Shown: in pieces, positions 32,857 to 56,043 of the stretch
Layout: each line of letters begins with the position of its first letter
Position numbering within the stretch: the stretch's first letter is position 1
Virus record (IMG/VR): IMGVR_UViG_3300017752_003321
Span: 1-61,421 of that record
DNA: 61,421 nucleotides
Reading direction: 5' to 3' (one strand)
DNA from: a virus
Position numbers and translations under genes: made by a program
The notes under the pieces: generated by a model
What the model was told of the DNA's origin: nothing
What the model saw: the letters and a program-made list of their open reading frames with translations, nothing else
Databases searched by the model: none

Positions 32857-33538
32857 ATGGAAAGATGATAATGATATATTTGGTAGAATGCTTATCCTGA
32901 CGAATAATCCATTATTTAATAATCTTCGGAATGCTGTTGACAACCACAATGCTGATCTTAGCGATGCTCTTAGTTGGGGACAATTAAAAAGCAAAAGATG
33001 GCTAGTAGATGAATTAGAAAAGATAGATTTGCCATTAGGAACTATATTTTTATGTGCAGGCTGGTATGCTACACTTGCTAGTATGTTATTTGCAAGTAAA
33101 TGTAGTGTAACTAAAATACGTAGTTTTGATATAGATGATAACTGTGCAACTATTGCAGAAACAGTTAACAGGAATAACACAAAAAACGAATGGAGGTTCA
33201 AAGCATCTACAGCAGATATACATAATATAGAATACACAGATTATACGTATAAAACAAAACGATTTGACGGAACAGTATGCGAGATTACAGACACTGCTGA
33301 AACTGTAATTAATACAAGTTGTGAACACATAGTAGACTTTAATAAATGGTATTCAAAAATTCCTAATCAAACTATTGTTGTGCTTCAAAGTAATAACTAT
33401 TTTGAAATTGACGATCATATTAATTGTTCAAAAAATATTTTAGAATTTGCTGAGCAGACACCGATGACTGATTGTTTATACAGTGGTGTATTAGAATTAC
33501 CTAAATATACAAGATTTATGAGAATAGGAGTAAAGTGA
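32849..33538 (+). CDS. Class I SAM methyltransferase-like protein
   Basis: A 229-residue protein with a Rossmann-like layout: GTIFLCAGWYATLASMLF in place of the usual glycine-rich motif I, then IRSFDIDDNCATIAETVNRN, where the acidic residues fit the SAM ribose contact, then WRFKASTADIHNIEY as a motif III-type segment, and FDGTVCEITDTAE. The glycine-rich loop is degenerate (CAGWYAT), so activity is not certain. The substrate is unknown. It overlaps both the preceding glycosyltransferase-like gene (8 bases) and abuts the next gene. Confidence 0.6.
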   Translation: MIKWKDDNDIFGRMLILTNNPLFNNLRNAVDNHNADLSDALSWGQLKSKRWLVDELEKIDLPLGTIFLCAGWYATLASMLFASKCSVTKIRSFDIDDNCATIAETVNRNNTKNEWRFKASTADIHNIEYTDYTYKTKRFDGTVCEITDTAETVINTSCEHIVDFNKWYSKIPNQTIVVLQSNNYFEIDDHINCSKNILEFAEQTPMTDCLYSGVLELPKYTRFMRIGVK

Positions 33539-34084
33539 ATGCAAAAAGTTATACATGAGACACACTTATCTAAAATAGTTCATGATCTTGATAAAAATAT
33601 TCTGATTAAAACACTCAAAAAAAGAGATATTCACCGAGCATGGTTTGACCTTTATCAGAAACTACAAGAAAAAACTCCTAATGTTGTAAAAATATTTGAT
33701 ATGATAGATAAACGTACCTACACGATGGAATATTTAGATCACATAATTGATAACTTTGATGACTTTACAAAACCACCTAGGGTATTTCCTCCTGAAAAAA
33801 AGTTAACTAAGTTAGACTTTTTAAGACTTCATAAGTGTATAAACAGCGTGTGGACATCAGCATTTGAATTAAGTCTAGATTTACCAGATCATGAATTTTT
33901 TACAAATAACGATGCCAAGTTAGCTAATATATGCATACTCAAACATAAGAGCGGATATCAATTCAAGTATATAGATGCAGATGGATGGTCAACAACTAAC
34001 GGTTATCATAGCATAGATTGTTATTATCAAACACAATTAAAAATAGCATTACAAATGCAGAGGATTTTAGTTCCTAATGTATAG
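33539..34084 (+). CDS. Minimal kinase-like (aminoglycoside phosphotransferase-fold) protein
   Basis: A 181-residue protein with traces of the protein-kinase/APH fold: VVKIFDMIDKRTYTMEYLDH resembles the strand 5 and hinge region, FFTNNDAKLANICIL resembles the catalytic loop (HGDxxxxN, here D125 and N130), and FKYIDADGW resembles the metal-binding Asp strand (D146/D148). There is little N-lobe, so it is much shorter than usual (250-330 residues). It may phosphorylate a small molecule or sugar, or be a non-catalytic relic. An AGGAG ribosome site precedes the ATG. It overlaps the next gene by eight bases. Confidence 0.55.
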   Translation: MQKVIHETHLSKIVHDLDKNILIKTLKKRDIHRAWFDLYQKLQEKTPNVVKIFDMIDKRTYTMEYLDHIIDNFDDFTKPPRVFPPEKKLTKLDFLRLHKCINSVWTSAFELSLDLPDHEFFTNNDAKLANICILKHKSGYQFKYIDADGWSTTNGYHSIDCYYQTQLKIALQMQRILVPNV

Positions 34085-35153
34085 ATACCAAGATATAAAA
34101 ACAATACATCTTGAAGTCACTCAAAACTGTCAAGCGGCTTGTCCTATGTGCGATCGTAATTGCAATGGTGAAGGAGTCAATCCACACATAAAACTTGATG
34201 AACTTACATTAGAAGATTGTAAACGTATTTTTTCGCCTACGTTTATTGCACAACTAGATACAATGTATATGTGCGGTAACTTAGGAGATCCTATAGTTGC
34301 ACGAGATACATTAGAAATATTCCGCTATTTTAGAAAACATAATTCGCAAATGTGGTTAAGTATGAATACAAACGCAGGAGCAAGAGATGAAACATGGTGG
34401 GCAAACTTGGCCGAAATCTTTGGAAGGATGGGGTCTGTTATTTTTAGCGTGGACGGTCTTTCCGATACTAATCATTTATATCGTCAAGGTGTTGTATGGA
34501 ATAATGTAGAACGTAGCATGGATGCTTTTATAGAAGCTGGCGGTAGAGCACGTTGGGACTTTTTAATATTTGAACATAATCAACATCAAGTTGAAGAAGC
34601 AAAAGCACTAAGCGAACAAAAAGGTTTTGAAAAATTTACTGCTAAAAAGACTGGACGCTTTATTACTACTAACAGTGATAAGAAAGAATCTCATCAAGCA
34701 GTAGATAAAAAAGGTAACGAAACTACAGAGCTTAAAAAGCCAGATGCAAAATATCAAAACAAGGCATTACAGAAGCAAGATGTTATTATTAACAAATATG
34801 GTAGTATGGATGCTTATTATGATGCCGCACCTATTGTATGTAAAGTAAAAAAGGATAATAGTTTATTCATCACAGCCGAAGGACTAGCCATGCCATGTTG
34901 TTGGACAGCTGGACGTATGTACAAATGGTGGAACAAAGATCCTTATGTAGAACAGATATGGGAACATATTGATATTGCAGGAGGCAAAGATGCCATCAAT
35001 GCAAAAAAAGGTTTGCGAGAAGTATTTGATACAGGAATATTTGATACAATTCAGCGTAGTTGGAAGTATGAAAGTTGTAATTTAGGAAAACTTAAAGTTT
35101 GCGCCATGAAGTGCGGAGCAGAGTTCGATCCGTATGCTGAGCAATTTAGATAA
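34077..35153 (+). CDS. Radical SAM/SPASM-type enzyme, group A
   Basis: A 358-residue protein with CQAACPMC (CxxxCxxC, residues 18-25). Where most family members have GGEP it has CGNLGDP. Other conserved landmarks are SMNTNAGARDE, FSVDGLSDTNHLYRQG and FLIFEHNQHQVEEAK. The C-terminus has SPASM-like Cys residues (IVCKVK, MPCCWTAG, SCNLGKLKVCAMKCG), so a second Fe-S cluster is likely. Genes at 35170, 36210 and 40779 share all these landmarks. SPASM enzymes commonly modify peptides, but carbohydrate-active members are also known. Confidence 0.83.
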   Translation: MYRYQDIKTIHLEVTQNCQAACPMCDRNCNGEGVNPHIKLDELTLEDCKRIFSPTFIAQLDTMYMCGNLGDPIVARDTLEIFRYFRKHNSQMWLSMNTNAGARDETWWANLAEIFGRMGSVIFSVDGLSDTNHLYRQGVVWNNVERSMDAFIEAGGRARWDFLIFEHNQHQVEEAKALSEQKGFEKFTAKKTGRFITTNSDKKESHQAVDKKGNETTELKKPDAKYQNKALQKQDVIINKYGSMDAYYDAAPIVCKVKKDNSLFITAEGLAMPCCWTAGRMYKWWNKDPYVEQIWEHIDIAGGKDAINAKKGLREVFDTGIFDTIQRSWKYESCNLGKLKVCAMKCGAEFDPYAEQFR

Positions 35154-35169
35154 GATAAGTAAGTATATA

Positions 35170-36213
35170 ATGGTTACTATAGACGATATTATTAAAATAG
35201 AATTAGAAATTACAAGTGATTGCAATGCGGCATGTCCGGGATGTGCTAGAACACGCCATATAGATAAATTATTAGTTACAAAATTTAGTTTTAATGATCT
35301 TAAACGCATTTTTCCTGATGTACGACATATAAAAGGTAAAGAATTTAAACTTTGTGGTGTGTTAGGCGATCCTATGATACATCCTGAAGTGGTTGATATG
35401 ACAGAATATTTGCTTGGCAATGGCGGAAGTGTGACAATAAGCACTAATGCAGGTGTAGGCAAAAAAGAAGATTATTATAGACTAGGAATGTTAAGTAGTA
35501 AATTTACAAATAAATTTATAATGCAGGCATGCATTGATGGGCATAGAGAAACAAATCATATCTACAGGGTGAATACAAAGTTCGATGTAATTGAAAGAAA
35601 CCTAAAAGAGTTTGCAAAAAATTCATATAAAGAACAGGATAAAAATAGATGGGTTTTTATTGTTTTTGATCATAATGAATATGAAATCGAAGCGGCTAAA
35701 AAACATGCTACAGAATTAGGTATGGTATTTTATACACGTACTGGTATGCGTAACGATTTACACAACTGGATTGCAGAGTTAGGTAAAAAGAATAACAAAG
35801 CACAAAAAGTTATTAGTACTAGTAAAGAACACAAGGGTAAGCAACAAGTGCTTGAGTTGGATAAATTGATTGCAACAAATAAAGTAGATACTGAAACACT
35901 AAAAACTATAAAATGTAAGTATGTACATGAGGGTGAATTATTTATAAATTCACAACAACAATTATGGCCTTGCTGTTTTTTGTGGGATACTATGTTTAGA
36001 GATAAAGAAAATATAAGAGAAAAATATTCTGAATTTGGCCCCAATTGGAATAATTTGAAAAAAATGACTATAGATAATATATTGGCTAGCCCATATTATG
36101 ATAAAGTGTTACAAGACAGTTGGAATCCTAATCATAATAAACATCTTTCAAGGTGTATACGGACTTGCGGATATAATGCGGCCTACCAGAATAAAGTGGA
36201 GAAAGTAGTATGA
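35170..36213 (+). CDS. Radical SAM/SPASM-type enzyme, group A
   Basis: The ATG at 35170 is chosen because it places CNAACPGC at residues 18-25, exactly as in the paralogue at 34077; an upstream in-frame ATG at 35134 would overlap the previous gene and lacks a ribosome site. The resulting protein has 347 residues. Landmarks: CGVLGDP in place of GGEP, TISTNAGVG, ACIDGHRETNHIYR, FIVFDHNEYEIEAAK, and C-terminal Cys at IKCKY, WPCCFLW and SRCIRTCG. It overlaps the next gene by four bases (ATGA). Confidence 0.82.
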   Translation: MVTIDDIIKIELEITSDCNAACPGCARTRHIDKLLVTKFSFNDLKRIFPDVRHIKGKEFKLCGVLGDPMIHPEVVDMTEYLLGNGGSVTISTNAGVGKKEDYYRLGMLSSKFTNKFIMQACIDGHRETNHIYRVNTKFDVIERNLKEFAKNSYKEQDKNRWVFIVFDHNEYEIEAAKKHATELGMVFYTRTGMRNDLHNWIAELGKKNNKAQKVISTSKEHKGKQQVLELDKLIATNKVDTETLKTIKCKYVHEGELFINSQQQLWPCCFLWDTMFRDKENIREKYSEFGPNWNNLKKMTIDNILASPYYDKVLQDSWNPNHNKHLSRCIRTCGYNAAYQNKVEKVV

Positions 36214-37208
36214 CTTGGAAAGTACCAGTATCAGAAAGGTTAGGGTTACAAGTAGAACTTACTAATCATTGTAATGCGGCATGCCACGCTTGTGCAAGAG
36301 TATGGCTAGTTAAAAATAAAGATAAAAAAGATTGGCACGAATATGATCTTTCAGTTAACGACAACTATGTAAGTCTAGAAGATTTTAAAGGTTGGGTTGA
36401 TAAAGATAAGTGGACAAGGTTAAAAAGAATTTTATTTTGTGGTAATTATGATGAACCTACAATTAATCCAGATGTTATAGAAATATGTAAATGGATAATT
36501 GATAGTAAGACTTTATTCCCTGCATTGCCTAAAATTACTATATCAACAAACGGCGGCGCCAGGAATGAAGAGTTTTATAGTGAATTAGGAAAATTATCCA
36601 AAGACAATCCAAACCGATTAAAAGTTAACTTTGGTATAGATGGATTTGAAGATACTAATCATCTGTATAGAGTTAATGTTAAATGGGAAAAGTTACAAAA
36701 AAATTGGAGAGCATATATAGCGGCAGGAGGAGAAGCATGGTGGCAATGGATAGAGTTTTCGCATAACAGCCATCAAAAGCATCTTGTTGCTGATTATGCT
36801 AAGAAAGAAGGATTTGTTAAAATCAAACGTATTAATAGTTGGCGCCCTAATGTAGCTGGCGCAAAAAATGTCGGCTATATAGAAAAGAAAGAGTCTCCTA
36901 AAATTGTACCAGATTGTTATAAGAATACTATGGATAGTCAAGGAATTTTTATTAACTACCAAGGATATATGACCCCTTGCTGTTGGATGGCAACAAATAG
37001 TGGATTCAAAGGCCTAGCCAACAACTTTTCTAACGATCACGGCAAAGATGGACATAAACTCAACGGCACTAATAGTATTCAAAGTGTATTTGATTCACAA
37101 TGGTTTACTGATTTTGCAGTTGAAATGGAAGCAGGAAAGATTCCAGTGTGTACTACAAAGTGCAAAGAAAATAAAACCAACTACTATAATTTTCAGGATA
37201 TAAGATGA
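36210..37208 (+). CDS. Radical SAM/SPASM-type enzyme, group A
   Basis: A 332-residue protein with CNAACHAC (residues 21-28). It has CGNYDEPTINPD where GGEP is expected, TISTNGGARNEE, FGIDGFEDTNHLYRVN and WIEFSHNSHQKHL, and C-terminal Cys at PDCYK, TPCCWMAT and VCTTKCKEN. It is a paralogue of 34077, 35170 and 40779. A GGAG ribosome site precedes the ATG. The gene overlaps both neighbours by four bases (ATGA), so it is translationally coupled. Confidence 0.83.
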   Translation: MTWKVPVSERLGLQVELTNHCNAACHACARVWLVKNKDKKDWHEYDLSVNDNYVSLEDFKGWVDKDKWTRLKRILFCGNYDEPTINPDVIEICKWIIDSKTLFPALPKITISTNGGARNEEFYSELGKLSKDNPNRLKVNFGIDGFEDTNHLYRVNVKWEKLQKNWRAYIAAGGEAWWQWIEFSHNSHQKHLVADYAKKEGFVKIKRINSWRPNVAGAKNVGYIEKKESPKIVPDCYKNTMDSQGIFINYQGYMTPCCWMATNSGFKGLANNFSNDHGKDGHKLNGTNSIQSVFDSQWFTDFAVEMEAGKIPVCTTKCKENKTNYYNFQDIR

Positions 37209-38608
37209 CCGATTCACCTAGCGAAACATTTTGCATTTTACCTTGGGTACATTTGAGCACTAGACCTGATGGAAGTATGCGTGTTTGTTGTACAGCCAAT
37301 GCTAGTAGTGTTGGCCCTACTAACGATAAAGAACATGGCGGACAAGTTGGAATACTTAAAGACGATGAAGGTAAGCCTAACAATTTAAATGTAGTTGACT
37401 TTGAAACTGCATGGAACAGCAAATATATGTGTAATGTTAGAAAACAAATGTTAGCTGGTGAAAAACCTCCAAGTTGTATTAAGTGTTATAAAGAAGAAGA
37501 TGCAGGACATAATTCTAAACGTATGTGGGAAACAGCATACTGGAAAAAACGTGTAAATTTAGATAAACTTTTACAAGAAACTAACGAAGACGGTAGTGTA
37601 CCTCCTAATCTTGCATATATCGATTTAAGATTTGGAACAAAATGTCAACTTGCATGTGTTATGTGTTCGCCTCATGATAGTAGTGGTTGGATCAAAGATT
37701 ATAAAAAAATATTTCCTCAAGTAAAAAACGAGTCTTTAAAAGAAATTATGCAATGGGAAAATAAAGGTAGTACGAATGGTAGTAGTTATAACTGGCATAA
37801 ACAAAATCCTATATTCTGGCAACAATTTTATGAACAAATGAAGCATATGAAGCAAATTTACTTTGCTGGCGGAGAAAGTTTGATTATCGAGGAACATTAT
37901 GAAATATTAGAAGAAGCAATTAGACAAGGGTTAGCACCGCAATTAGAATTGCGTTATAATTCAAACGGAGTAGAATGGCGCGATGACCTATTTGAGTTAT
38001 GGAGTCATTTTAAATTAGTTAGATTTCATTATAGTGTTGACAGTATAGAAACTATGAATGAGTATATACGTTACCCAAGTAAATGGGATAGGACTAGAGA
38101 AGTATTTCACATATTAGACAAAGAAACAACAGACAATGTTGAAATAACTGTTGCTTGTGCAGTACAAGCCTTAAACATTTACTATATTCCTGACTTTATT
38201 AAATGGAAGATGCAAGAAGGTTTTAAAAAAGTAAATATGTGGCCGTTCGGTGCAGGTATGATCAACTATCATTTTGTATATTGGCCCGCACATTTAAATG
38301 TAAAAGTACTTCCTAAATGGTTTAAAGAAGAATGTAGACGTAAGTATGAAGAATTTTATCCTTGGTTAGAAGAAAATTGGGAACTATGTATACCTAGTTG
38401 GCACAAAGGAAAGGTAGATTACGAAAAATGGCGTGAAGCAAGTTATGGTATTAGCAGATTAAATGGTATGTTAAGTTTTATGGAGTCAGAAGACTGGAGC
38501 AGACGATTACCTGAAATGAAAGAATTTTTAACCCTGTGTGATAAACAACGTGGTATTACATTTGAAGAAACATTTCCGGAGATGAAGGATATCTTTAATG
38601 AGCTTTGA
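37205..38608 (+). CDS. Radical SAM enzyme with N-terminal auxiliary Cys domain (twitch type)
   Basis: A 467-residue protein of the same plan as those at 30816 and 39706: an N-terminal Cys-rich part (FCILPWVHLSTRPDG, MRVCCTAN, PSCIKCYKEED), then the core CQLACVMC (residues 147-154) and IYFAGGESLIIEEHYE, where GGES replaces GGEP. N-terminal ILPWVH with CC and CxxC is typical of so-called twitch-domain radical SAM proteins. The second half is Trp-rich. The ATGA overlap couples it to the gene before, and it overlaps the gene after by 11 bases. Confidence 0.84.
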   Translation: MTDSPSETFCILPWVHLSTRPDGSMRVCCTANASSVGPTNDKEHGGQVGILKDDEGKPNNLNVVDFETAWNSKYMCNVRKQMLAGEKPPSCIKCYKEEDAGHNSKRMWETAYWKKRVNLDKLLQETNEDGSVPPNLAYIDLRFGTKCQLACVMCSPHDSSGWIKDYKKIFPQVKNESLKEIMQWENKGSTNGSSYNWHKQNPIFWQQFYEQMKHMKQIYFAGGESLIIEEHYEILEEAIRQGLAPQLELRYNSNGVEWRDDLFELWSHFKLVRFHYSVDSIETMNEYIRYPSKWDRTREVFHILDKETTDNVEITVACAVQALNIYYIPDFIKWKMQEGFKKVNMWPFGAGMINYHFVYWPAHLNVKVLPKWFKEECRRKYEEFYPWLEENWELCIPSWHKGKVDYEKWREASYGISRLNGMLSFMESEDWSRRLPEMKEFLTLCDKQRGITFEETFPEMKDIFNEL

Positions 38609-39716
38609 TACCGTAGATTTATTGACAGGAGATGTATTTCAAATTACATGGGATTTAGGAAGAAGATGTAATTATGATTGTAGTTATTGCCCTGCACACA
38701 GACATGATAACTTTAGTAAACATGCAACTTTGGATGAATTAAAAAGTAGTGTAGATTTTGTATTTGAATATATCGATACTTATATGCAACATCGAACATA
38801 TAAAGAAGCAAATATTAGTTTTACTGGCGGCGAGCCAACTGTTAACCCAAATTTTATTGCTTTTGTAAAATATTTAAAGGAACAATACGAATTAAAGTAT
38901 AAAGACAAATGGGTTTGTGGATTTTCGTTAACAAGTAACGGTGCTATGAGTTCTAAGATGGCACAAAGTATTATAGATAATCTATATTACATAACGGTAA
39001 GTTATCATGCCGAAAGTTCTGAAAAATTAAAACAGCAGGTAAAGGATAGGATATTACAATTCCATAATGCAGGATTTAACATGAACTGTAATGTAATGTT
39101 TCATGCACAGCATTTTGATGAATGTAAAGAACTATGCTCGTGGTTAAAGAACTTAGGAGTTGATTTTACTCCGAGAATTATAGGAGAAGAACCAGACAGT
39201 GCAAAAACATTTGCCCACGTATACACAGAAGAACAAATTAATTGGATGAAAACTTATTGGGGTCTTAAAGTTCCTAATAAAAACAAAGTTGATTCTAAAG
39301 AAAAACAACTAGGAAATAGTATAGGACGTCCATGTTGTGGCGGCAGAAAAATGTGTCTAAGTTCAGGCACAAATAGTCGTACAGACAAATTTGTAGACTT
39401 TAGAGAATTTAAAGGTTGGAGTTGTAGTGTAAATTGGTTCTTCCTACACTTAGAACAACAAACAGATCAAATATTCCATCATCAAACATGCCAAGCAAAG
39501 TTTGATGGGACTAGGGGAGCAATAGGAAAAATAAGTGAAGGATATAAAGTAGTAAAAGAACTTAAACACAAACTAGAAACACAAACAATGCCTACTATTA
39601 TATGTCCCAAACATACTTGTGGTTGTGGGTTGTGTGCTCCTAAGAGCAAGTATCAAGAAAAATATTTAGAAACTACTAAAAGACATTTTGATATTGGAGT
39701 ATTAGATGTCGTATAA
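38598..39716 (+). CDS. Radical SAM enzyme, group C
   Basis: A 372-residue protein with CNYDCSYC (residues 24-31) and canonical FTGGEPTVNPNF. C-terminal Cys-rich stretches (RPCCGGRKMC, GWSCSVNW, TCGCGLCAPK) likely bind an extra Fe-S cluster. It resembles the gene at 42368: GRRCNYDCSYCPAHR versus GRFCNYRCSYCWPYAR, and FKGWSCSVN versus FKGWSCNAG. An AAGGA site lies nine bases before the ATG. It overlaps both neighbours by 11 bases. Confidence 0.85.
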   Translation: MSFDTVDLLTGDVFQITWDLGRRCNYDCSYCPAHRHDNFSKHATLDELKSSVDFVFEYIDTYMQHRTYKEANISFTGGEPTVNPNFIAFVKYLKEQYELKYKDKWVCGFSLTSNGAMSSKMAQSIIDNLYYITVSYHAESSEKLKQQVKDRILQFHNAGFNMNCNVMFHAQHFDECKELCSWLKNLGVDFTPRIIGEEPDSAKTFAHVYTEEQINWMKTYWGLKVPNKNKVDSKEKQLGNSIGRPCCGGRKMCLSSGTNSRTDKFVDFREFKGWSCSVNWFFLHLEQQTDQIFHHQTCQAKFDGTRGAIGKISEGYKVVKELKHKLETQTMPTIICPKHTCGCGLCAPKSKYQEKYLETTKRHFDIGVLDVV

Positions 39717-40779
39717 TTGCTTAGAGTCAATAAACAGTATATATGTTGAGAAAGCAGAACAAGGATATGCAGTAAGTCCGTGCTGTCTATATAAAGATAA
39801 AAGTAAAGTTTTTGTACCTACTTTAGATGATGTCATTGACAATCCAACAATTAATGAGATTAGAGAAGGTTTTAAAGGATATTGGAAACGACCTGAATGC
39901 ATAGCCTGTGTACAAAAGGAACAAATAGGCAAAAAAAGTAAGAGACTACGTAGTTTAGATAGACCAGCTAATCAAATTACAAGTTGGGATTTGCGTCCAG
40001 GAAATACTTGTAACTTAAAATGTGCCATGTGTAATCCTGGTAATAGTAGTAAATGGTATGAAGATATAGATGTTTACAAAAAATATCTTGGACCATTTAC
40101 TAATGAAAATAACAGACAGTCAAGAGAGTCGCTAGATTGGGATTGGATATATGAAAAATGTGTAGACAAAGCAGAAATAATTTATATAGCAGGCGGCGAA
40201 CCTTTTTATATGAAGCCAGTTCAAAAATTTCTAAAACAGTTATCTAACCACGAATGGAATTGTAACAACACAAGAATACAAATTCAAACTAATGGTGTAA
40301 GTAATACTCCACATCTATTAAACATATTAAGTAAATTTAAAAAGTTAGAATTTAGTATCAGTGTTGATGGTTGGGGGAGCGTAAATGATCTTATACGGTT
40401 TCCAACTAAACATAAAGACTTTTTAAAAAATACACAAGAACTTGTTGACTTAAATTGCGATCATCTATATTTTAATATTACTGTACAAGCAATGAACTTA
40501 CCTAATGTTGATAAGTTAGTAACAAAATTACAAGAAACTTGGAACGGAAAATATGATGTTCATAAGTTAACCAAACCTAGTTATCTAGCAGTAAATTGCT
40601 TAAAACCTAAAGTAGTTGAAAGAGTTTTACATGATACAAAAGTTTTTGAATTAAACAGTTTTTATAAAGATTATAAATTTGATAGCAAGTTAAATAAACG
40701 TATGCAAAGTTTCCTTTTAGATTTAGATGCTAAAAGAGGAACTGATAGCAGAAAAATTATACCGTGGTGTTTTGAGTAA
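39706..40779 (+). CDS. Radical SAM enzyme with N-terminal auxiliary Cys domain (twitch type)
   Basis: A 357-residue protein, shorter relative of the genes at 30816 and 37205. The N-terminal Cys part reads YAVSPCCLYKDK and ECIACVQKEQIGKKSKR; the core is CNLKCAMC (residues 102-109), followed by IIYIAGGEPFYMKPV and FSISVDGWGSVNDLIRFP. The canonical GGEP is kept. The TAA overlaps the ATG of the next gene by one base. The substrate is unknown. Confidence 0.84.
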   Translation: MSYNCLESINSIYVEKAEQGYAVSPCCLYKDKSKVFVPTLDDVIDNPTINEIREGFKGYWKRPECIACVQKEQIGKKSKRLRSLDRPANQITSWDLRPGNTCNLKCAMCNPGNSSKWYEDIDVYKKYLGPFTNENNRQSRESLDWDWIYEKCVDKAEIIYIAGGEPFYMKPVQKFLKQLSNHEWNCNNTRIQIQTNGVSNTPHLLNILSKFKKLEFSISVDGWGSVNDLIRFPTKHKDFLKNTQELVDLNCDHLYFNITVQAMNLPNVDKLVTKLQETWNGKYDVHKLTKPSYLAVNCLKPKVVERVLHDTKVFELNSFYKDYKFDSKLNKRMQSFLLDLDAKRGTDSRKIIPWCFE

Positions 40780-41720
40780 TGTGGACAACTGAAACATTAG
40801 AATGGATTGATATTGAACTTACAAGTTTTTGTAACATACGTTGTAAAGGGTGCTTTCGAGAATTATCCACACATGCAGATAAAATTCTTAATAAAACATA
40901 TTTAGATATTACTACGATTAAAGAAAAATTTAAAAAAGAAATGTTTCCTAATATTAAAATCATTAATTTTTGTGGTAGTGTTGATGAACCAACTAGTCAT
41001 CCTCAATTTTTTGAAATCGTAAAACATTTTGCTAGTTGGGACTGTCATATTAATGTTGCTACTAATGGCAGTTTACGTAGTGAAAAATGGTGGGGAGACC
41101 TAGCCAAAATATTACCTAGTAGTCATAGAGTCACTTGGGGCATAGACGGTAGCGATGAATTATCAGAAGTTTATAGGCAAGGTAGTAATTTTAAAAAAGT
41201 AGAAAAGAATTTTAGATCATTTATAAAAGCTGGCGGCTTAGCTAATTGGCAATTTATTGTGTTTGAACATAATGAACACCAGTTGGAGATTGCTCGTGCT
41301 AGAGCCACTGAAGAAGGATTTCATGCGTTCCAAACAATTTATAGTCATCGTAAAGACACAAAAGATGTAAAACCTAAACAAGTTGATAATAAAGAGTCGA
41401 GCTGTATTAGTTGCAAATATGCTAATCAAAAACGCATATTTGTAAATCACATGGGTAATGTTATTCCATGCTGTCACCTTAATGCTAAAATGTTAGAATA
41501 TCCGGTAAGTAATATTAATAAAGATAAATTTGAGGACATACTTGAAGAACAAGACTATATATCTGATATTAATTTGAAAAATGTAACTATAGAACAAGCT
41601 ATAAACGGAAAAGTTTGGACAGACATAAAAAACAGTTGGACATCAGATAACAAGATTCCTCGTTGCGAGCAAGTGTGTAAGCAAAATAAAAGAGATAAAT
41701 TTGTGAAGGAAATATTATGA
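40779..41720 (+). CDS. Radical SAM/SPASM-type enzyme, group A
   Basis: A 313-residue protein, fourth of the group A paralogues although separated from the other three by three genes of other groups. CNIRCKGC is at residues 18-25; CGSVDEPTSHPQ stands where GGEP is expected; then NVATNGSLRSEKWWGDLAK, GIDGSDELSEVYRQGS and FIVFEHNEHQLEIAR. C-terminal Cys residues lie at SCISCKYA, IPCCHLNA and PRCEQVCKQ. The next gene starts with a four-base overlap (ATGA). Confidence 0.83.
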   Translation: MWTTETLEWIDIELTSFCNIRCKGCFRELSTHADKILNKTYLDITTIKEKFKKEMFPNIKIINFCGSVDEPTSHPQFFEIVKHFASWDCHINVATNGSLRSEKWWGDLAKILPSSHRVTWGIDGSDELSEVYRQGSNFKKVEKNFRSFIKAGGLANWQFIVFEHNEHQLEIARARATEEGFHAFQTIYSHRKDTKDVKPKQVDNKESSCISCKYANQKRIFVNHMGNVIPCCHLNAKMLEYPVSNINKDKFEDILEEQDYISDINLKNVTIEQAINGKVWTDIKNSWTSDNKIPRCEQVCKQNKRDKFVKEIL

Positions 41721-42322
41721 ATAAGATAATAGGAAAAATATCAAGCCTATTAGGTATAGTATCACATTGTCAACGTAATTGGATTGAATCGAAAAAAATA
41801 CCCGAAGAGCATCTAAATTATATTATTGAAGCCTGTACGGACATGCCAACAAAACAACAAAAAGACGTATACTCATTAGTAGCAATTACAGATAGAAAAA
41901 TAATTATGGAACTTTTCGAAACTTGTTATGAAGAGAAGGATTATGCAAGAACATTTAAAAGAAATACACAAGTATTGGCAAATTTATTATTAGTATGGAT
42001 ACCTAGTAATAGTATTAAAGGAACTGATTCATATGGCCAATCGTTAGGAATAGCTGTAGGAATATCGGCCGCGGCGGCCGCACTTGCAGGAGCAGAATTA
42101 GGATACCGCACAGGATTTTGTCGATGTATTAATGAAGAAAAATCCAAAAAGGTACTTGAATCTTATATTGGAAAAATAAAAAAAGAAGAAGTACCTCTTA
42201 TGTTAGGAATAGGAATACCAGATGAAAAATTTGAACATAATGTTATGGCAATAAATGGTGCAAGGTTTGGACATAAAATTAGCGACGATAAACCTAATCG
42301 CAAAGTATACAGACTAGCATAG
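41717..42322 (+). CDS. Nitroreductase-like flavoprotein
   Basis: A 201-residue protein with the outline of the FMN nitroreductase fold: CQRNWIESKKIPEEHLNYII then EACTDMPTKQQKDVYSLVAI (compare RRSxRxF...PxxxxL..IL..A...PSxxNxQPW), a small-residue helix GISAAAAALAGAELGYRTGF and LMLGIGIPDE near the end. Family members reduce nitro groups, quinones or flavins, or oxidise azolines in peptide tailoring. In this setting it may supply reducing power to, or work on the product of, the radical SAM enzymes; that is inference. GAAGGA precedes the ATG. It is the only such gene in the operon. Confidence 0.68.
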   Translation: MNKIIGKISSLLGIVSHCQRNWIESKKIPEEHLNYIIEACTDMPTKQQKDVYSLVAITDRKIIMELFETCYEEKDYARTFKRNTQVLANLLLVWIPSNSIKGTDSYGQSLGIAVGISAAAAALAGAELGYRTGFCRCINEEKSKKVLESYIGKIKKEEVPLMLGIGIPDEKFEHNVMAINGARFGHKISDDKPNRKVYRLA

Positions 42323-42333
42323 GAATATTTTAA

Positions 42334-42362
42334 TTGACAAATATATATAAAAGTGCTATAAT
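42334..42362 (+). promoter_or_regulatory. Consensus sigma-70-like promoter with start codon five bases downstream
   Basis: TTGACA (42334-42339), a 17-base spacer and TATAAT (42357-42362) are both perfect consensus hexamers. The ATG of the next gene begins at 42368, so transcription would start at or within one base of the start codon. No ribosome site fits between. This predicts a leaderless mRNA made by the host polymerase. Confidence 0.8.
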
Positions 42363-42367
42363 TAACT

Positions 42368-43483
42368 ATGAATGAAGATTTGAAATGGTCGAACTATGAC
42401 TTCTCTAAAATACCGTTTGATGATATTGTCAGTGTGGGTCAACGTACTCTGCTTTATCGTGATCTATTTACTGTATCCTGGCTCCTCGGCCGCTTCTGTA
42501 ACTACAGATGTAGTTATTGTTGGCCCTACGCACGAAGTGATAGAAAAGATCACAGACCTACCGAATTGTGTATTCGAACGATCGACGAAATCAAGCGACA
42601 AGCCCGGGGAAACGGATTCAATAGCTTTCACTTTTCATTGTCAGGGGGTGAGCCTACCTTTCATCCAGGATACTTGGACATTCTCAAACACCTCGCCCAA
42701 GATGTAGTAAACACAAATTATACAAGTATACACATGACTTCAAACTGTTCACGTAAAATGAATTGGTTTGAAACCTATGTAGAATATGCAAAACCCTTTC
42801 ATAGAGCTAGTATTACTGCAAGTCTACATACTGAACATGTAAACACACCTGTAAAGATGCAGGAGTTTGCTGACAAACTTATATTTTGCCAAGAGCATGA
42901 CGTACAAGTTACAATTAATATGGTTATGGTACCACAGTGGTTTGAACGTGATTGGGATAATGCATTATTCTTCCATGATCAAGGAATCAATGTAACACTA
43001 AAGCCACAAAGTGATCCTACAGCAAGTTTTGTTGTAGATGGATATACTGAAGAACAATTACAAAAATTATATAACGGAATGCCACAACGTGCATATACTG
43101 ATAAAAAACGTAAATGGGCAAACAGACCAAAACCTAAATTTAGTTTACTTCCACCTATGGAAGTAAGCACAGGGGAAAGAATACCTGCACATTATCAAGT
43201 TGAGTTAGAAGATTCTAATGGCGATAAGTATTATATGGATCAGGCAGAAAGATTTAATGCTTTTAATTTTAATAAGTTTAAAGGATGGAGTTGTAATGCA
43301 GGATACAGCGGAATTATTATTAGAGAACCAGACGGCAGTATAAAACGTAGCTATAGTTGTAGAGATGTGCCTTTGGGTAATATTGAAACAGGTTTTAAAC
43401 TTTTTGACAGTCCTATGCCGTGTATTACAGATAGTTGTGTATCAAGTGCAGATTCTAAGATACCAAAAAGGAGAATATTATGA
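42368..43483 (+). CDS. Radical SAM enzyme, group C, with own promoter
   Basis: A 371-residue protein with CNYRCSYC (residues 44-51) and FSLSGGEPTFHPGY. C-terminal Cys are at GWSCNAGY, SYSCRDVP and PCITDSCVSS. It resembles the gene at 38598. No ribosome site precedes the ATG, which follows a consensus promoter by five bases. The first ~340 bases use C- and G-ending codons (CTC, GGC, TTC, TAC), while the rest returns to A/T-ending codons like its neighbours, which points to a recombined 5' part or different selection there. An overlapping +1-frame ORF at 42396-42707 looks like a by-product of that composition. Confidence 0.85.
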   Translation: MNEDLKWSNYDFSKIPFDDIVSVGQRTLLYRDLFTVSWLLGRFCNYRCSYCWPYARSDRKDHRPTELCIRTIDEIKRQARGNGFNSFHFSLSGGEPTFHPGYLDILKHLAQDVVNTNYTSIHMTSNCSRKMNWFETYVEYAKPFHRASITASLHTEHVNTPVKMQEFADKLIFCQEHDVQVTINMVMVPQWFERDWDNALFFHDQGINVTLKPQSDPTASFVVDGYTEEQLQKLYNGMPQRAYTDKKRKWANRPKPKFSLLPPMEVSTGERIPAHYQVELEDSNGDKYYMDQAERFNAFNFNKFKGWSCNAGYSGIIIREPDGSIKRSYSCRDVPLGNIETGFKLFDSPMPCITDSCVSSADSKIPKRRIL

Positions 43484-44130
43484 TAGAAAATGTTTCAAAT
43501 TTTGATGACGAATCATGGGGACCAAAAGCAGAGAAAATTAGCATTTGGCATTTTGATCCGACAATAGTTGATAAAGAAGAAGATGTTTTTATGAAGGTAT
43601 GTAACTTCGATTTAGATTTTGATGAAGACCTTAAAAAAGCAAAAGAAAACATACAGCCAACAGTTACTCACCATACAGAGTTTTGGAGCGGAATAGGATA
43701 TCCAGAAGGAGTGCCTATTACTGATTCTTCTTTCAAATTCGATTTATCTAAGTACCCAAACTTCAAAGAAATAATAGACCGTCTAGGATTAGTAGAACAT
43801 GAAGAATTTGATATCAAAGTAAAATTATTTTGCCAAAGACCAGGGCAGATGTTACCAACTCACATTGATAACTATAAAAAAGCATCAGAAGAAAAAACAT
43901 CAGAAATTGCTCTAACTGCTCTTAGATTTGTTGTTGCTCTTAATGACTGGGACATTGGTCATTATTGGCACTTTGGAAATGCAGTTTGGAAGCAATGGAA
44001 AAAAGGAGACTGTGTCCATTGGCATAGAACTATGGCACATGGTACTGCAAATACAGGACATAGTGATAGATTAAGTTTGCAAATTACAGGCATACCTAGC
44101 GAAAAAACTTTTAAGTTAATTCATAGTTAA
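43480..44130 (+). CDS. 2OG-Fe(II) oxygenase-like (Asp/Asn hydroxylase type)
   Basis: A 216-residue protein with a cupin-like core: MLPTHIDNYKK gives HxD (H128, D130), and HWHRTMAHGTANTG with H187 and R197 (SDRLSLQI) gives the distal His and the 2-oxoglutarate Arg. The layout fits aspartyl/asparaginyl beta-hydroxylase-like enzymes, which hydroxylate proteins or small molecules using Fe(II), 2-oxoglutarate and O2. AAAGGAG precedes the ATG, which overlaps the radical SAM stop by four bases. Its 3' end overlaps the converging sulfotransferase gene by 20 bases. Confidence 0.78.
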   Translation: MIENVSNFDDESWGPKAEKISIWHFDPTIVDKEEDVFMKVCNFDLDFDEDLKKAKENIQPTVTHHTEFWSGIGYPEGVPITDSSFKFDLSKYPNFKEIIDRLGLVEHEEFDIKVKLFCQRPGQMLPTHIDNYKKASEEKTSEIALTALRFVVALNDWDIGHYWHFGNAVWKQWKKGDCVHWHRTMAHGTANTGHSDRLSLQITGIPSEKTFKLIHS

Positions 44131-44767
44131 ACTTGTTTATCTCCCATTTAAAACTTTCTTCTACAATCTGTTTTAATTCAGGAGTATAATACTCTTCGAT
44201 TGGTTTTTCTCGTTCGGGTCCTTTGTTCCTAATTTTTCTTTCTATGTTAGGTTTGTATATATTGTATCTTTGTAAAAGACCATCAAGATCATCATATAAA
44301 TTATCAGTATCAATGTAATGATCGCAAGCCGGAATATTGTTTTCATAATAGATGTTTTTATCAACATGACAATGACCATGCTTGTCATACATGCTTTTGA
44401 TCCAAGTTTCAAATGTCCGCCAATCGTATTCCACACCAGTGAGTACATTCTCTCTAGGACTTAAATGCCATCCTTCTTGATGTCTGTATTCGTAAAAACT
44501 AACTAATTTTTTATATGGATTTCTTATGGATGTAAAAAATTTAAAATTTTCTGCCCCTGGAACATTTTGTTTTACTTGCGTGATGTTGCTATGTAAATAA
44601 AAATTCATTAGATTTGGTTGATAATTATCCCTGTGATTTGACCTTGCTATATGATAGTTGTAGTATTGATAATGTAGCGTATTTTCTATGTAACGCTTCA
44701 CACTTACACTACCGGTTTTTACAGTTGCAATATAAACAAGATTTATTGGATGGTATATGATAATCAC
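44111..44767 (-). CDS. Sulfotransferase family protein
   Basis: A 218-residue protein. IATVKTGSVSVKRYI (residues 13-27) is the 5'-phosphosulfate loop and FFTSIRNPYKKLVSFYEYR (77-95, with R82 and S90) is the 3'-phosphate motif of PAPS-dependent sulfotransferases. It is shorter than typical family members (about 250-300). The start is GTG at 44767 (no better start). It would move sulfate from PAPS to a sugar or other hydroxyl. It is the only minus-strand gene between two plus-strand blocks and converges on the oxygenase gene with overlapping ends. Confidence 0.78.
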   Translation of the reverse strand: MIIIYHPINLVYIATVKTGSVSVKRYIENTLHYQYYNYHIARSNHRDNYQPNLMNFYLHSNITQVKQNVPGAENFKFFTSIRNPYKKLVSFYEYRHQEGWHLSPRENVLTGVEYDWRTFETWIKSMYDKHGHCHVDKNIYYENNIPACDHYIDTDNLYDDLDGLLQRYNIYKPNIERKIRNKGPEREKPIEEYYTPELKQIVEESFKWEINKFNYELT

Positions 44768-44809
44768 ATAAGTATTTACACAAATGCATAGGCGGTAAAT
44801 ATACTTATG
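44767..44809. promoter_or_regulatory. Inverted repeat in the divergent intergenic gap
   Basis: CATAAGTATTTAC (44767-44779) and GTAAATATACTTATG (44795-44809) are inverted copies apart from a two-base insertion, separated by 15 bases. The right arm ends in the ATG of the radical SAM gene; the left arm covers the start of the sulfotransferase gene. TTTAC and TATACT-like pieces on both strands could act as back-to-back promoters, or the repeat could bind a regulator. Confidence 0.4.
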
Positions 44810-46861
44810 AGCCTAAAAGTCCTGATCTCACAACCAAATTTATACGATTCAAAAGTCTTTATGCCACTAGTGTTCTTATGCCTAAAAACATACGTGGATA
44901 AACAAGAAGACATACAGCCTGTTACTTGGCTCGATCCTTTATTTAGAAATACAGATGTTGATACAATGTTAAAAGGTATAAATTTAAAACAATTAGATAT
45001 CTTAGGATTAAGTTGTTATGATTGGAATTGGCAACTAAATTTACAAATAGCAAAAAGAGTAAAACAAGAAAATCCTAATTGTTTGGTTATAGCAGGAGGA
45101 CCTCACCCTGATTGGAAAGATGTAGATTTTTTTAAAAATTATCCACAGATAGACATTATTGTGTATAACGATGGAGAACGTCCTTTTGCTGAAATTATAA
45201 AAGCAGTGCAACAAGGCACAGAATTTAAAAATATTAATAATTTGATATTGCCCGGATTAAGAACTCCGCCAGATTCTTTGTTTAAAGAATTTGATGCAAG
45301 TCCATGGCTAGAAAATAAAGAGTGGGTGTTAGATTTTAAAAAACGCTATATAGACGAAGGTAGCAATCAGCACTTTACATTGCTATGGGAAACAGATAGA
45401 GGATGTCCTTTTAAATGTTCTTTTTGTGATTGGGGTAGTGCTACAAATAGTAAAGTGCGTAGGATACCTGAGCAAAGGGTTTATGACGAGATTGATTTCT
45501 TTACCAAAGAATTAAAGGTAGATGTTCTATATCATGTAGGTGCAAACTTAGGAATTTTTCCTAGAGACTTAGATTTTGTAAAATACATATGTAACAAAAA
45601 GATAGAAACTGGATATCCTAAAAGTTTTCAATATAGCACTAGTAAAAACACTCCTGAACGCACAGTTGAAATAGCCAAGTCTTTGTATAATGCTAAACTA
45701 TTAAAAAAACATGTTGTAAGTTTACAGCATACTAAACAAGAAGTATTAGACTGTATTGATAGATATAATATTCCAGTGAAACGACAAATACCAATGATTA
45801 GAGATTTAAATAAAGAACGAATGCCATGTATTAGTCAAATGGTAATGGGAATGCCAGGAGATACTCCTGATCTTTGGATGCAAGCATTGACAGATACTAT
45901 TGAATGGGGTATACATTACGAATGTAGAATATATGACTTCCAATTACTTCCTAATGCTCCAGCCGCTCAAAAAGAGTATATGGAAAAATGGCAGATAGAA
46001 ACCAGGGTAAGAAAACATTTTATAAACGGATATCATAAATTTTTAGAACAAGATCATGAGAGCGAACCTTCTACCAGTGAGTTTATTGTTGCTACAAAAA
46101 CATACTCATTAGAAGACTGGCTACAAATGAAGGTATTTGGAAAAATGTTTATGGCTTTACATGGTGGAAGTATCACTAAATGGGCTAGTATGTTTTGTAG
46201 AAATACATTAGGTATAACTTATTACGATTTTTACAAAGGTATATATAACAATTTTTTTAAAAATCCTTTGTATACATATACTAATTCCATATATAACACA
46301 GGCTACACGCATTTTAAAAATTTTATAGATGACGATAATTTGACAGATGAACTTCAAATTCCAGAATTAGAAAACGGCAGATTCTACCAATTAGAAGAAT
46401 ACATTCTTTGGAAATGCTTGTATGATACAAATTTTGAAGTTAATCAAAAGTTTTGGACAGAATTACAACAATACTTAGATACAACATATAATAACGAAAT
46501 GTTACACGACCTGTTAGAATTTAATAAAAAAATGATACTAAATTTTGACTATAGATCAGAAGTTGGAAAAAACATAATGTGCAATAGAGATTGGTTAGAA
46601 TACATTGATTCGTGTACATGGAACACAGTAGATAATACAGCAGAAAATTTTGATGTAAATTCAAATCTAATTAATGTTCCTGTTGCTTTTAATCAAGGAA
46701 AAGTTTGGTATACTAAAGATCATAAGATAGGACAATTTCCTATGGGAGGAGCACAGGATGTTAATTGGTATGATAACAAAGAAATGTTTGTTAATACGAT
46801 ACTAGCACCAACCTATATGCGTGGAACTAGAACGGTATATAATAGGGGTAGCTATGTTTAA
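44807..46861 (+). CDS. Radical SAM enzyme with B12-binding-like N-terminus
   Basis: A 684-residue protein. Residues 1 to about 170 form a Rossmann-like B12-binding-type domain (VLISQPNLYDSKVF, LDILGLSCYDWN, LVIAGGPHPDWKDVDFF, IVYNDGERPF), but the DxHxxG cobalamin motif is not seen, so binding of B12 is doubtful. The radical SAM core has CPFKCSFCDWGS (CxxxCxxC at 200-207) and SQMVMGMPGDTPDLW. About 250 extra C-terminal residues are Tyr/Trp/Asn-rich and match nothing I know. It starts only one base after a TATACT. Members of this class methylate or rearrange unactivated carbon atoms. Confidence 0.83.
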   Translation: MSLKVLISQPNLYDSKVFMPLVFLCLKTYVDKQEDIQPVTWLDPLFRNTDVDTMLKGINLKQLDILGLSCYDWNWQLNLQIAKRVKQENPNCLVIAGGPHPDWKDVDFFKNYPQIDIIVYNDGERPFAEIIKAVQQGTEFKNINNLILPGLRTPPDSLFKEFDASPWLENKEWVLDFKKRYIDEGSNQHFTLLWETDRGCPFKCSFCDWGSATNSKVRRIPEQRVYDEIDFFTKELKVDVLYHVGANLGIFPRDLDFVKYICNKKIETGYPKSFQYSTSKNTPERTVEIAKSLYNAKLLKKHVVSLQHTKQEVLDCIDRYNIPVKRQIPMIRDLNKERMPCISQMVMGMPGDTPDLWMQALTDTIEWGIHYECRIYDFQLLPNAPAAQKEYMEKWQIETRVRKHFINGYHKFLEQDHESEPSTSEFIVATKTYSLEDWLQMKVFGKMFMALHGGSITKWASMFCRNTLGITYYDFYKGIYNNFFKNPLYTYTNSIYNTGYTHFKNFIDDDNLTDELQIPELENGRFYQLEEYILWKCLYDTNFEVNQKFWTELQQYLDTTYNNEMLHDLLEFNKKMILNFDYRSEVGKNIMCNRDWLEYIDSCTWNTVDNTAENFDVNSNLINVPVAFNQGKVWYTKDHKIGQFPMGGAQDVNWYDNKEMFVNTILAPTYMRGTRTVYNRGSYV

Positions 46862-53604: not shown

Positions 53605-54610
53605 CTACGTATTCAGCAGTTGACCATTCCATTTTGTCTTTAGCAAAATCAACAAGCAACTTCAGTCTTTCTTTTGTAACGTAGCTATACAATGAATCCA
53701 TAATTATATTTGACTCTTCACCAAAGTACATAGGATAATCGCCAAGTTTGGAAATCAGATATTCTCTACTTTCTTTATTAGCCATCATATTTTCAAATGC
53801 TTGTACTACTTCATTTGAATTTGCACCTGGATGCATAAACAGTCCTTTTTGCAATCCATCACGCCATACTGCTGATAAGATGTATGCTTCGTAAATATCA
53901 CCTGATGGTTCTTTATTAAATGTTTTCTTGTAAAGATCTACTACTGTAGGTGTATCTGGCCAGTTATAATCTTGGACAAAACCGTTATCAGGAGTAAACA
54001 TTCCGTGATTGAATAATCTTACTGCTTCTCCATCTTCTACCATAGGAGCAGTATTCTTAATATGTCTTGAAGCTGGCTCTCTAATATATGTAAAGTCACC
54101 TCTTAGCCAAGCCTGTTTCGCATCACCTGCACTCATCTTTCTTACAAAGTTAATATTGTTCCAACCTTTAAGCAAAGTCCAGCCTAGTGTTTCAGGTACA
54201 CAACCTGAACAGTCTGCTAAATTAAGTACATCATTTTGCCAGTCGTAATCACTAGCAATAGTTGTTGTAATATTATATGGTTGAATTAAGATCGGTTCCC
54301 AATCTTTAAAACTCCATTTTACATTTTCGATTAACCATGCATTAGCATTGCCGCCATGTGCAAGTAAAATAACCTTAGGATCGTTTTTATATTTGGTATT
54401 GAAAGTTTCTAAACCAACATTACCTTTACCGCCCTTAATATTTTCTACAATTACTTTTTCGCCTAAGTATTTTTCTAGCTCAGACGCAACAACATCGGCC
54501 CAAATTGCAGTACCTGTTCCTTTAGGGCTAGGAACAACTAATCTATAATCGGCCATCGCCGAGGTTGCCGTTAGAATTAATCCTACAACCAATGTTAACA
54601 TATGTTTCAT
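53585..54610 (-). CDS. tctC: Tripartite tricarboxylate transporter periplasmic binding protein TctC
   Basis: A 341-residue protein with a clear signal peptide (MKHMLTLVVGLILTATSAMA, likely cut near residue 20). The mature part starts DYRLVVPSPKGTGTAIWADV and has EKVIVENIKGGKGNVGLE, the hallmark of the Bug/TctC family, which binds carboxylates in the periplasm and hands them to TctA/TctB. Its start overlaps the TctA stop by a single ATGA, with AGGAG upstream. No TctB is seen in the window. Which carboxylate is bound cannot be read. Confidence 0.86.
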   Translation of the reverse strand: MKHMLTLVVGLILTATSAMADYRLVVPSPKGTGTAIWADVVASELEKYLGEKVIVENIKGGKGNVGLETFNTKYKNDPKVILLAHGGNANAWLIENVKWSFKDWEPILIQPYNITTTIASDYDWQNDVLNLADCSGCVPETLGWTLLKGWNNINFVRKMSAGDAKQAWLRGDFTYIREPASRHIKNTAPMVEDGEAVRLFNHGMFTPDNGFVQDYNWPDTPTVVDLYKKTFNKEPSGDIYEAYILSAVWRDGLQKGLFMHPGANSNEVVQAFENMMANKESREYLISKLGDYPMYFGEESNIIMDSLYSYVTKERLKLLVDFAKDKMEWSTAEYVDEKTID

Positions 54611-56043
54611 TTATAACTCCTATTTGTTTCAACATATTTTAGACCGGCAACAATAGTTACTAGTGTTAACACGAACAATACGATAGTAATTGGACGTTCT
54701 ATCAACGTAGTTATATTGTACAACGACATTGTTTGATAACTCAATGCTTCAATCTTAGCAAATAAGATAAAAGCTAACAATATCGCTGGTCTATTTAATT
54801 CAAGGCGCTTAGATGTTAATCCAATCGCCGCACATACTACTAAAGTAGCAATATCATAATATGTATGCGATATTTGATAACATGACCAACCAATTAATAA
54901 TAATATCAAAGGCGCATACACTTTTACTGGAATCCTTAAAAGTAAAGTAATAGGCTTACTCAACAACAAACAACTAATGCCTACCAAAACAGTACCTCCT
55001 AAAAATCCTATTGTAAGATATTTATAGAACTCACTATCTTGTTGAATTGAAACTGAACCCAAGTCAAAATGTAGCAAGTAAAATAAACTTAATATGACAG
55101 CAGTAAACGGTGTACCTGGTATACCAAATACTACTGTCGGAACAAAACTAGCGGCCGTGACAGCATTATTTGCACCTTCTGGTCCTACTACTCCTGCTAT
55201 GTTTCCGTTGCCGAATTTTCTTTTAGGTAAACTAAATTTAGTTTGTGCATAACTAAGCCAATCAGCAACTATGCCGTGTACTCCTGGCAGAGCACCAACT
55301 AATGCTCCTATCATTCCTCCACGTAGACTTATGAACCAATATTTTTTCCAAGCCAAGATACCTAGCACTACTTGCCTCCAGCTTGAGTTTAATTTTTGTA
55401 ATTGGTTATTTTTTAAAAACATATCAACTATTTCTGGAACAGCAAATAATCCACTCACAAGAATGAGTACATTAATACCATCTTCTAGATATGTGTAACC
55501 AAATGTAAGTCTAGGTGCATTATTCTCATCAATACCTATATAACCTAATAAGAATCCTAATAAGATACTTACTATTCCTAGTCTAATATTTCCTTTTACT
55601 AAAAATACAACACAAGTAAGAGCTAATATATTAAGCATTAATAATTCAGGAATGCCAAAAATTAAAAGTAGTTTACCATAAATTGGCATTAACAAGAAAA
55701 CAAGCGAACCAAATAGCAATCCGTTTATCGTACTACTTGTAAAAGCGGCACTTAAAGCGTAGGTTGCTTTTCCTTTTTTCGCTAGAGGATATCCGTCTAG
55801 CACCGTTGCCGCACTAGAACTACTTCCAGGAATACCAAGCAATATGCTACTCCATGTATCTCCTGTGGCACAAGCCGCGACCATTGCTGTGTAAAAAGCT
55901 ACACCTAAATAAGGATCGCTATAAAAATAAGGGAAAAATACGTAACTAGTAAGTAGTGCGGTTGTAGGACCAGCTGTTGGAATTACACCAAATGCAAGTC
56001 CCCAAGCTACTCCTAACGATACAAATATAAAAACTTCAAACAT
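54607..56043 (-). CDS. tctA: Tripartite tricarboxylate transporter large membrane subunit TctA
   Basis: A 478-residue, very hydrophobic protein with about 11-12 membrane segments. GVIPTAGPTTALLTSYVFF, SILLGIPGSSSSAATVLDGY and AKKGKATYALSAAFTSS are TctA family signatures; GALPGVHGIVADWLSY is the inverted second-half copy. It normally pairs with the small subunit TctB and the binding protein TctC to import citrate or other carboxylates by a cation gradient. The first gene after a strong promoter; no ribosome site fits before its ATG. Without TctB, either the host supplies one or the phage pair works alone. Confidence 0.88.
   Translation of the reverse strand: MFEVFIFVSLGVAWGLAFGVIPTAGPTTALLTSYVFFPYFYSDPYLGVAFYTAMVAACATGDTWSSILLGIPGSSSSAATVLDGYPLAKKGKATYALSAAFTSSTINGLLFGSLVFLLMPIYGKLLLIFGIPELLMLNILALTCVVFLVKGNIRLGIVSILLGFLLGYIGIDENNAPRLTFGYTYLEDGINVLILVSGLFAVPEIVDMFLKNNQLQKLNSSWRQVVLGILAWKKYWFISLRGGMIGALVGALPGVHGIVADWLSYAQTKFSLPKRKFGNGNIAGVVGPEGANNAVTAASFVPTVVFGIPGTPFTAVILSLFYLLHFDLGSVSIQQDSEFYKYLTIGFLGGTVLVGISCLLLSKPITLLLRIPVKVYAPLILLLIGWSCYQISHTYYDIATLVVCAAIGLTSKRLELNRPAILLAFILFAKIEALSYQTMSLYNITTLIERPITIVLFVLTLVTIVAGLKYVETNRSYK

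What the first reader, a model, noticed from the sequence alone, without database searches (positions are those of the whole stretch)
42334..42710. Perfect promoter and leaderless start on a radical SAM gene whose 5' third has different codon use
TTGACA-17-TATAAT is perfect and ends five bases before the ATG, so the mRNA would start at the start codon. The first ~340 bases of the gene use C- and G-ending codons, unlike the AT-rich remainder and neighbours. The composition change begins at the promoter, suggesting that a promoter-plus-5' segment was acquired from a richer-GC source or is kept under another constraint, such as early expression without a ribosome site.
Basis: partly seen in the sequence, partly recalled or inferred. 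Interest (0 to 1): 0.65.

Follow-up and report, generated by a model that had tools for sequence, protein, structure and literature searches.

The report
Conserved leaderless promoter on phage gene
A gene for a radical-SAM enzyme found in many uncultured marine phages carries a bacterial-type promoter placed exactly so that the messenger RNA should begin at the start codon with no ribosome-binding site, and this arrangement has been kept by selection in dozens of relatives; the odd codon use that drew attention to it is mostly a separate and ordinary matter.

Summary
The promoter is real: TTGACA-17-TATAAT at 42334-42362, five bases before the ATG at 42368. It is conserved. Of 66 non-redundant homologues, 38 have a near-consensus sigma70 promoter (at least 10 of 12 hexamer bases), nearly all ending 5 or 6 nt before the ATG. 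Only 4 of 619 other ORFs in the same loci do. A second set of homologues repeats this (28 of 35). Hexamers are conserved and the spacer is not, and the base before the ATG is a pyrimidine in 36 of 39, as expected if transcription starts at the A of AUG. Best reading: a host-sigma70 promoter giving a leaderless mRNA. This is inferred; no transcript was measured. Related phages carry the same design on other genes (UvdE, PanD, primase-like, TctA).

The codon claim holds only in part. GC3 is 0.44 over codons 1-110 against 0.20 after, but the rise covers codons 38-110 and does not start at the promoter; it is the gene's tail that departs from the family. Both parts are closest to the same sister sequence. 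A recombination breakpoint exists near 42511, between homologues, not at the GC boundary. Acquisition from a GC-rich source is not supported.

The parts
42334..42339 (+). -35 hexamer TTGACA
42340..42356 (+). 17-nt spacer, ending AAAAGTGC with a TG one base before the -10 (extended -10); the family consensus here is GGTGn
42357..42362 (+). -10 hexamer TATAAT
42363..42367 (+). 5-nt gap TAACT between -10 and ATG; base before the ATG is T (pyrimidine in 36 of 39 promoter-bearing homologues)
42368..43483 (+). radical SAM gene, 371 aa: CX3CX2C at C44/C48/C51, four invariant C-terminal cysteines C309/C331/C352/C357; predicted +1 of the mRNA is the A of its ATG
42368..42511 (+). first ~48 codons, closest to L034/L041/L043-like homologues; recombination breakpoint at its 3' end
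42479..42697 (+). codons 38-110: the part with raised GC3 (0.48, 0.30 expected from amino acids)
43467..43473 (+). Shine-Dalgarno-like AAAGGAG before the overlapping second gene
   Evidence: sequence
43480..44130 (+). second gene of the transcription unit, overlaps the first by 4 nt; weak Asp/Arg beta-hydroxylase match (just below the curated cut-off)
54607..56043 (-). TctA-family transporter gene with a second leaderless-type promoter TTGACT-17-TATAAT-5-ATG (-35 starts at 56077), kept in homologue L211

Best explanation
The 37 bases 42334-42370 are a complete leaderless expression signal. Host RNA polymerase with its housekeeping sigma factor would bind the consensus promoter and start at the A of the ATG, six bases after the -10. 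The 5'-terminal AUG would then be used directly by ribosomes, without a Shine-Dalgarno sequence, as for lambda cI. This would let a radical-SAM gene, shuffled between many different gene neighbourhoods in marine myovirus-like phages, be expressed on its own with almost no intergenic space. It also heads a two-gene unit whose second gene has an ordinary Shine-Dalgarno site. Shown: sequence, placement, conservation, neighbourhoods. Inferred: the start site, the polymerase, the translation mode, the timing.
For: 38 of 66 non-redundant homologues score at least 10 of 12 for the two hexamers with 16-18 spacing; the distribution is nearly bimodal; counting one more that scores 9, 39 have gaps of 5 (24), 6 (14) or 7 (1) nt; other ORFs in the same loci: 4 of 619. 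Second set: 28 of 35, gaps 5 (16) and 6 (12). Pairwise identity is 0.94 at -35 and 0.85 at -10 but 0.43 in part of the spacer. Base -1 is a pyrimidine in 36 of 39 against 182 of 416 other ATG ORFs, Fisher p 1e-9. The protein is conserved from residue 4-5 on in the aligned members, which fixes the start region. The promoter sits in the only gap (45 nt) of the run of abutting or overlapping genes 27421-44130. Other promoters of these phages have longer leaders, several with AGGAG-like sites. In 16 records of related phages, perfect sites of this kind number 22 against 2 for the reversed control, and 14 open ORFs of at least 100 aa. In IMG/VR, ATG at gap 5 opens a long ORF in 46 of 116 sites, at gap 11 in 19 of 118.
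Against: No transcript ends, host or ribosome data exist. 27 of 66 homologues lack the promoter; most of these abut or overlap the upstream gene, so the arrangement is not essential to the gene. The gap-2 control is also somewhat raised (29 of 120), partly through one repeated family. Read-through from the upstream operon is not excluded.
Confidence: 0.82

Rival explanations
1. The gene is expressed mainly by read-through from the long upstream operon; the promoter adds little, and an AAGGTG-like stretch about 12-13 nt before the ATG serves as a poor ribosome site in some copies.
For: The upstream genes run on the same strand, mostly abutting or overlapping. No terminator-like site in 41500-45000. 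AAGGTG occurs before the -10 in many homologues.
Against: In the window the stretch reads AAAAGTG. The GGTG element lies where an extended -10 belongs, and its spacing to the ATG is long for a ribosome site. Promoter hexamers would not be kept against a free spacer if they did nothing. In several copies the upstream gene is on the other strand (L004, L007, L041, L067, L068, L072).
Confidence: 0.1
2. The promoter is functional but starts a few bases away, giving a leader of one to three bases or a start just inside the ATG.
For: -10 to +1 distances vary in bacteria; gap 6 and one gap 7 occur as well as gap 5.
Against: Pyrimidine at -1 and A at +1 fit a start at the A of AUG. A leader of up to three bases could not hold a ribosome site, so the mechanism would be nearly the same.
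Confidence: 0.06
3. A promoter plus the first ~340 bases was acquired from a GC-richer genome.
For: GC3 0.44 against 0.20; a recombination breakpoint exists in the gene.
Against: Codons 1-37 are not GC3-rich. The breakpoint is at about 42511, not 42700, and the donor-like sequences are homologues from other phages. Both parts are nearest to L001. Codons 38-110 are above amino-acid expectation in the whole family (0.371 against 0.307), while the window's codons 111-371 fall below the family.
Confidence: 0.04
4. The 5' third is under another coding or RNA constraint, such as an overlapping gene (the +1-frame ORF 42396-42707) or an RNA element.
For: A 103-codon alternative-frame ORF coincides with the GC3-rich part. 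GC3 in codons 38-110 is higher in promoter-bearing homologues (0.418 against 0.346).
Against: Synonymous conservation is not raised there; only codons 1-10 are (1.52 times expectation). With tree-independent pairs the GC3-promoter link is not seen, though too few pairs were available to decide. Conservation of the +1-frame ORF itself was not checked.
Confidence: 0.02

Closest known systems
Leaderless mRNA of phage lambda cI
   Same: Phage gene whose AUG is at the 5' end of the mRNA, no Shine-Dalgarno site (PMC9031893 names cI as a lambda leaderless mRNA; that cI is read from PRM is from general knowledge)
   Different: Here an auxiliary enzyme gene with a near-consensus promoter in large myovirus-like phages; no operators were looked for; placement conserved across a divergent family in changing neighbourhoods
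TA-led leaderless genes of bacteria (Zheng et al. 2011, PMC3160421)
   Same: TATAAT-like box about 10-12 nt before the start codon, no Shine-Dalgarno signal
   Different: Described for cellular genomes by signal profiles; here a full -35/-10 promoter in viruses, tied to particular genes
Phage moron cassettes (general knowledge)
   Same: Extra gene with its own host-type promoter inserted among unrelated neighbours
   Different: No terminator-like site, and the next gene overlaps by 4 nt, so it heads a small operon
T4-type late promoters TATAAATA in the same window
   Same: Promoters of the same phage
   Different: They precede putative virion genes at 24962(+) and 58158(-) with about 26 nt between promoter and ATG
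MoaA / PqqE / anSME / viperin group of radical SAM proteins with twitch or SPASM ends
   Same: CX3CX2C core and extra C-terminal cysteines; MoaA is the best Foldseek match (TM about 0.44-0.5)
   Different: Far below all curated NCBIfam cut-offs shown; substrate unknown

Membership tests
sigma70-type promoter | TTGACA and TATAAT with 16-18 nt spacing | tested here: met
   12 of 12, spacer 17
sigma70-type promoter | hexamers conserved against a free spacer in relatives | tested here: met
   0.94 and 0.85 against 0.43 identity; note that copies were selected for matching hexamers, the control being 4 of 619 other ORFs
sigma70-type promoter | recognised by host RNA polymerase | not testable with these tools
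   host unknown
leaderless gene | -10 box about 8-14 nt (from its A2) before the ATG | tested here: met
   10 nt; range given in PMC3160421
leaderless gene | no Shine-Dalgarno site between the -10 and AUG | tested here: met
   only 5 nt, TAACT, between the -10 and the ATG
leaderless gene | AUG start that is the true start | tested here: met
   ATG in nearly all homologues, N-terminal residues invariant from L5 on
leaderless gene | mapped 5' end at the A of AUG | not testable with these tools
   only indirect: pyrimidine at -1 in 36 of 39
phage moron | own promoter, variable neighbourhood | tested here: met
phage moron | own terminator | tested here: not met
   no terminator-like site in 41500-45000; next gene overlaps
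radical SAM with twitch/SPASM-like end | CX3CX2C and conserved C-terminal cysteines | tested here: met
any named radical SAM equivalog (MoaA, viperin, PqqE) | curated score cut-off | tested here: not met
   best score 42 bits against cut-offs of 130 or more

The most novel reading that the evidence does not exclude
These marine phages have a leaderless gene class: a defined set of auxiliary and early genes (this radical-SAM gene, TctA, PanD, UvdE, primase-like, QueC-like) read from host promoters placed 5-6 nt before the AUG, so that they are translated by a route that differs from that of the Shine-Dalgarno-led late genes and may be favoured at a given stage of infection.
Probability: 0.3. 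Interest if true: 0.72.

Novelty: new variant of a known kind. Interest (0 to 1): 0.52.

Why it matters
Leaderless phage genes are known mostly as single cases such as lambda cI. Here one arrangement is conserved to the base in a large family of uncultured phages and recurs on other genes of the same phages. That makes leaderless expression predictable from sequence, gives a way to call true start codons in such genomes, and offers a natural set of genes for asking when in infection leaderless translation is used.

Tried and rejected
Overlapping gene or RNA element in the 5' third: rejected on synonymous conservation; conservation of the +1-frame ORF itself was not examined. Link between raised GC3 and promoter: present without correction for kinship, not with independent pairs, which were too few to decide. 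A second breakpoint near codon 110 is weak (L001|L045|L024, p 0.006 before correction). Single origin of the promoter-bearing state: the best tree needs 12-13 changes, though well-supported branches force only 2. Shine-Dalgarno difference between promoter-bearing and promoterless copies: none seen with a crude match score, which also counts untranscribed bases. Cultured relatives: none in the phage collection. Cellular relatives: five MAG contigs, 64-81% identical, none with the promoter by eye. The literature searches found no report of this gene family or arrangement.

Full report
Observation. It is the only perfect consensus promoter in the window; about 0.05 per strand are expected by chance. 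The gene at 42368-43483 has GC3 0.44 in codons 1-110 and 0.20 after, more contrast than any other ORF in the window.

What the gene is. It encodes a 371-residue radical SAM protein (Pfam PF04055, 1.4e-13) with CX3CX2C at C44/C48/C51 and four invariant cysteines near the C-terminus. The AlphaFold model (pLDDT 78) is closest to MoaA and to peptide-modifying enzymes such as SkfB and anSME, at TM 0.44-0.5. It falls far below the curated NCBIfam cut-offs, so the substrate is unknown. The protein is highly conserved: at least 278 stretches in IMG/VR encode a relative, the best 80 being 80-88% identical, and none was found in cultured phages. The window is a virus record of 61 kb with a myovirus baseplate protein, a long array of radical SAM genes with oxygenase-like genes among them, and T4-type late promoters before putative virion genes.

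Is the promoter more than chance? Upstream regions of 66 non-redundant homologues were scored with the same rule. 38 have at least 10 of 12 hexamer matches; the -10 ends 5 or 6 nt before the ATG in nearly all, and there are few intermediate scores. Of 619 other ORFs in the same loci, 4 reach this score. A set found with a different peptide pattern gave 28 of 35 further distinct sequences; a few of these are near-copies of one another. The hexamers are 94% and 85% identical between promoter-bearing copies, part of the spacer 43%. An extended -10 (GGTGn) is common. The base before the ATG is a pyrimidine in 36 of 39 copies, against 182 of 416 for other ATG-started ORFs; this fits the usual pyrimidine-purine start (general knowledge) with +1 at the A of AUG. 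Residues from L5 on are invariant in the protein alignment, so the start codon is hardly in doubt.

Neighbourhood. The gene lies in ever-changing surroundings. Many promoter-bearing copies leave only some 18-40 nt to the upstream gene, about the size of the promoter; in others the upstream gene is on the other strand. Most promoterless copies abut or overlap the upstream gene. In the window the 45-nt gap before 42368 is the only gap in a run of abutting or overlapping genes from 27421 to 44130. The downstream gene overlaps by 4 nt and has its own AAAGGAG. So the first gene of this small unit is led by the promoter and the second by a Shine-Dalgarno site.

Other genes with the same design. In the window a TctA-family gene (PF01970, 2.9e-92) on the minus strand has TTGACT-17-TATAAT-5-ATG, kept in its 92% relative L211 although the spacer differs. 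In 16 longer records of related phages, 22 perfect sites with an ATG 4-7 nt after the -10 were found against 2 for the reversed control. Fourteen open ORFs of at least 100 aa: six are this gene, and the others include UvdE, PanD, a Toprim-domain protein and QueC-like proteins. Across IMG/VR, an ATG 5 nt after a perfect promoter opens an ORF of at least 100 aa in 46 of 116 sites, against 19 of 118 at 11 nt and 29 of 120 at 2 nt. Ten of the gap-5 ORFs were scanned: exonucleases, a nucleotide kinase, a QueE-like protein, a peptidase and others.

Codon use. With amino acids taken into account, the rise is in codons 38-110, not next to the promoter. The same codons are raised in the family as a whole, and the window's codons 111-371 are lower than the family's. 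Codons 1-110 and 111-371 both have L001 as nearest relative. Synonymous sites are conserved above expectation in the first ten codons but not in the rest of the 5' third. There is a recombination breakpoint at about nt 143 of the gene (42511): before it the window sequence resembles L034, L041 and L043, after it L001 (p 5e-5 per triple in 20,000 shuffles, some 64 triples looked at). So promoter-proximal sequence has been exchanged, but between homologues and without carrying the GC-rich part.

Mechanism. Best reading: host RNA polymerase makes a leaderless mRNA from this promoter, and ribosomes start at the 5'-terminal AUG, as described for lambda cI and other leaderless mRNAs (PMC9031893) and for TA-led bacterial genes (PMC3160421). 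The first 45 nt fold weakly (mean -2.9 kcal/mol against -6.7 inside the gene), as is usual for starts. Early expression is an inference from the host-type promoter; nothing here shows timing.

Noticed in passing
54607-56043 (-): A phage-borne TctA-family (tripartite tricarboxylate transporter) gene, with its own leaderless-type promoter; six relatives in IMG/VR.
   Followed up: partly
24928 (+) and 58193 (-): Two near-identical T4-type late promoters TATAAATACATATAAC before putative virion genes, about 26 nt before the ATG.
   Followed up: partly
27421-44130: Long run of abutting or overlapping genes rich in radical SAM enzymes, with a nitroreductase-like neighbour (41717, by resemblance of its homologues) and an Asp/Arg hydroxylase-like gene; looks like a biosynthetic island of unknown product.
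   Followed up: partly
57025-58158 (-): Protein with a major tropism determinant N-terminal domain (Mtd_N, 1.6e-12); no search for a diversity-generating element was made.
   Followed up: no
L545:1156-1503 (-) and L534:382-1503 (-): PanD-like aspartate decarboxylase and UvdE-like UV endonuclease in phage records, each with a perfect leaderless-type promoter.
   Followed up: partly
L411-L523 (gap-2 control loci): A repeated family of about 135-aa proteins (MLLYDWKKIF...) with the -10 ending 2 nt before the ATG.
   Followed up: no
L224, upstream of the homologue: The start region appears duplicated: a copy reading ATATCATGACAGAAGATATTAAATA lies just before the ATG, itself preceded by ATATC.
   Followed up: no
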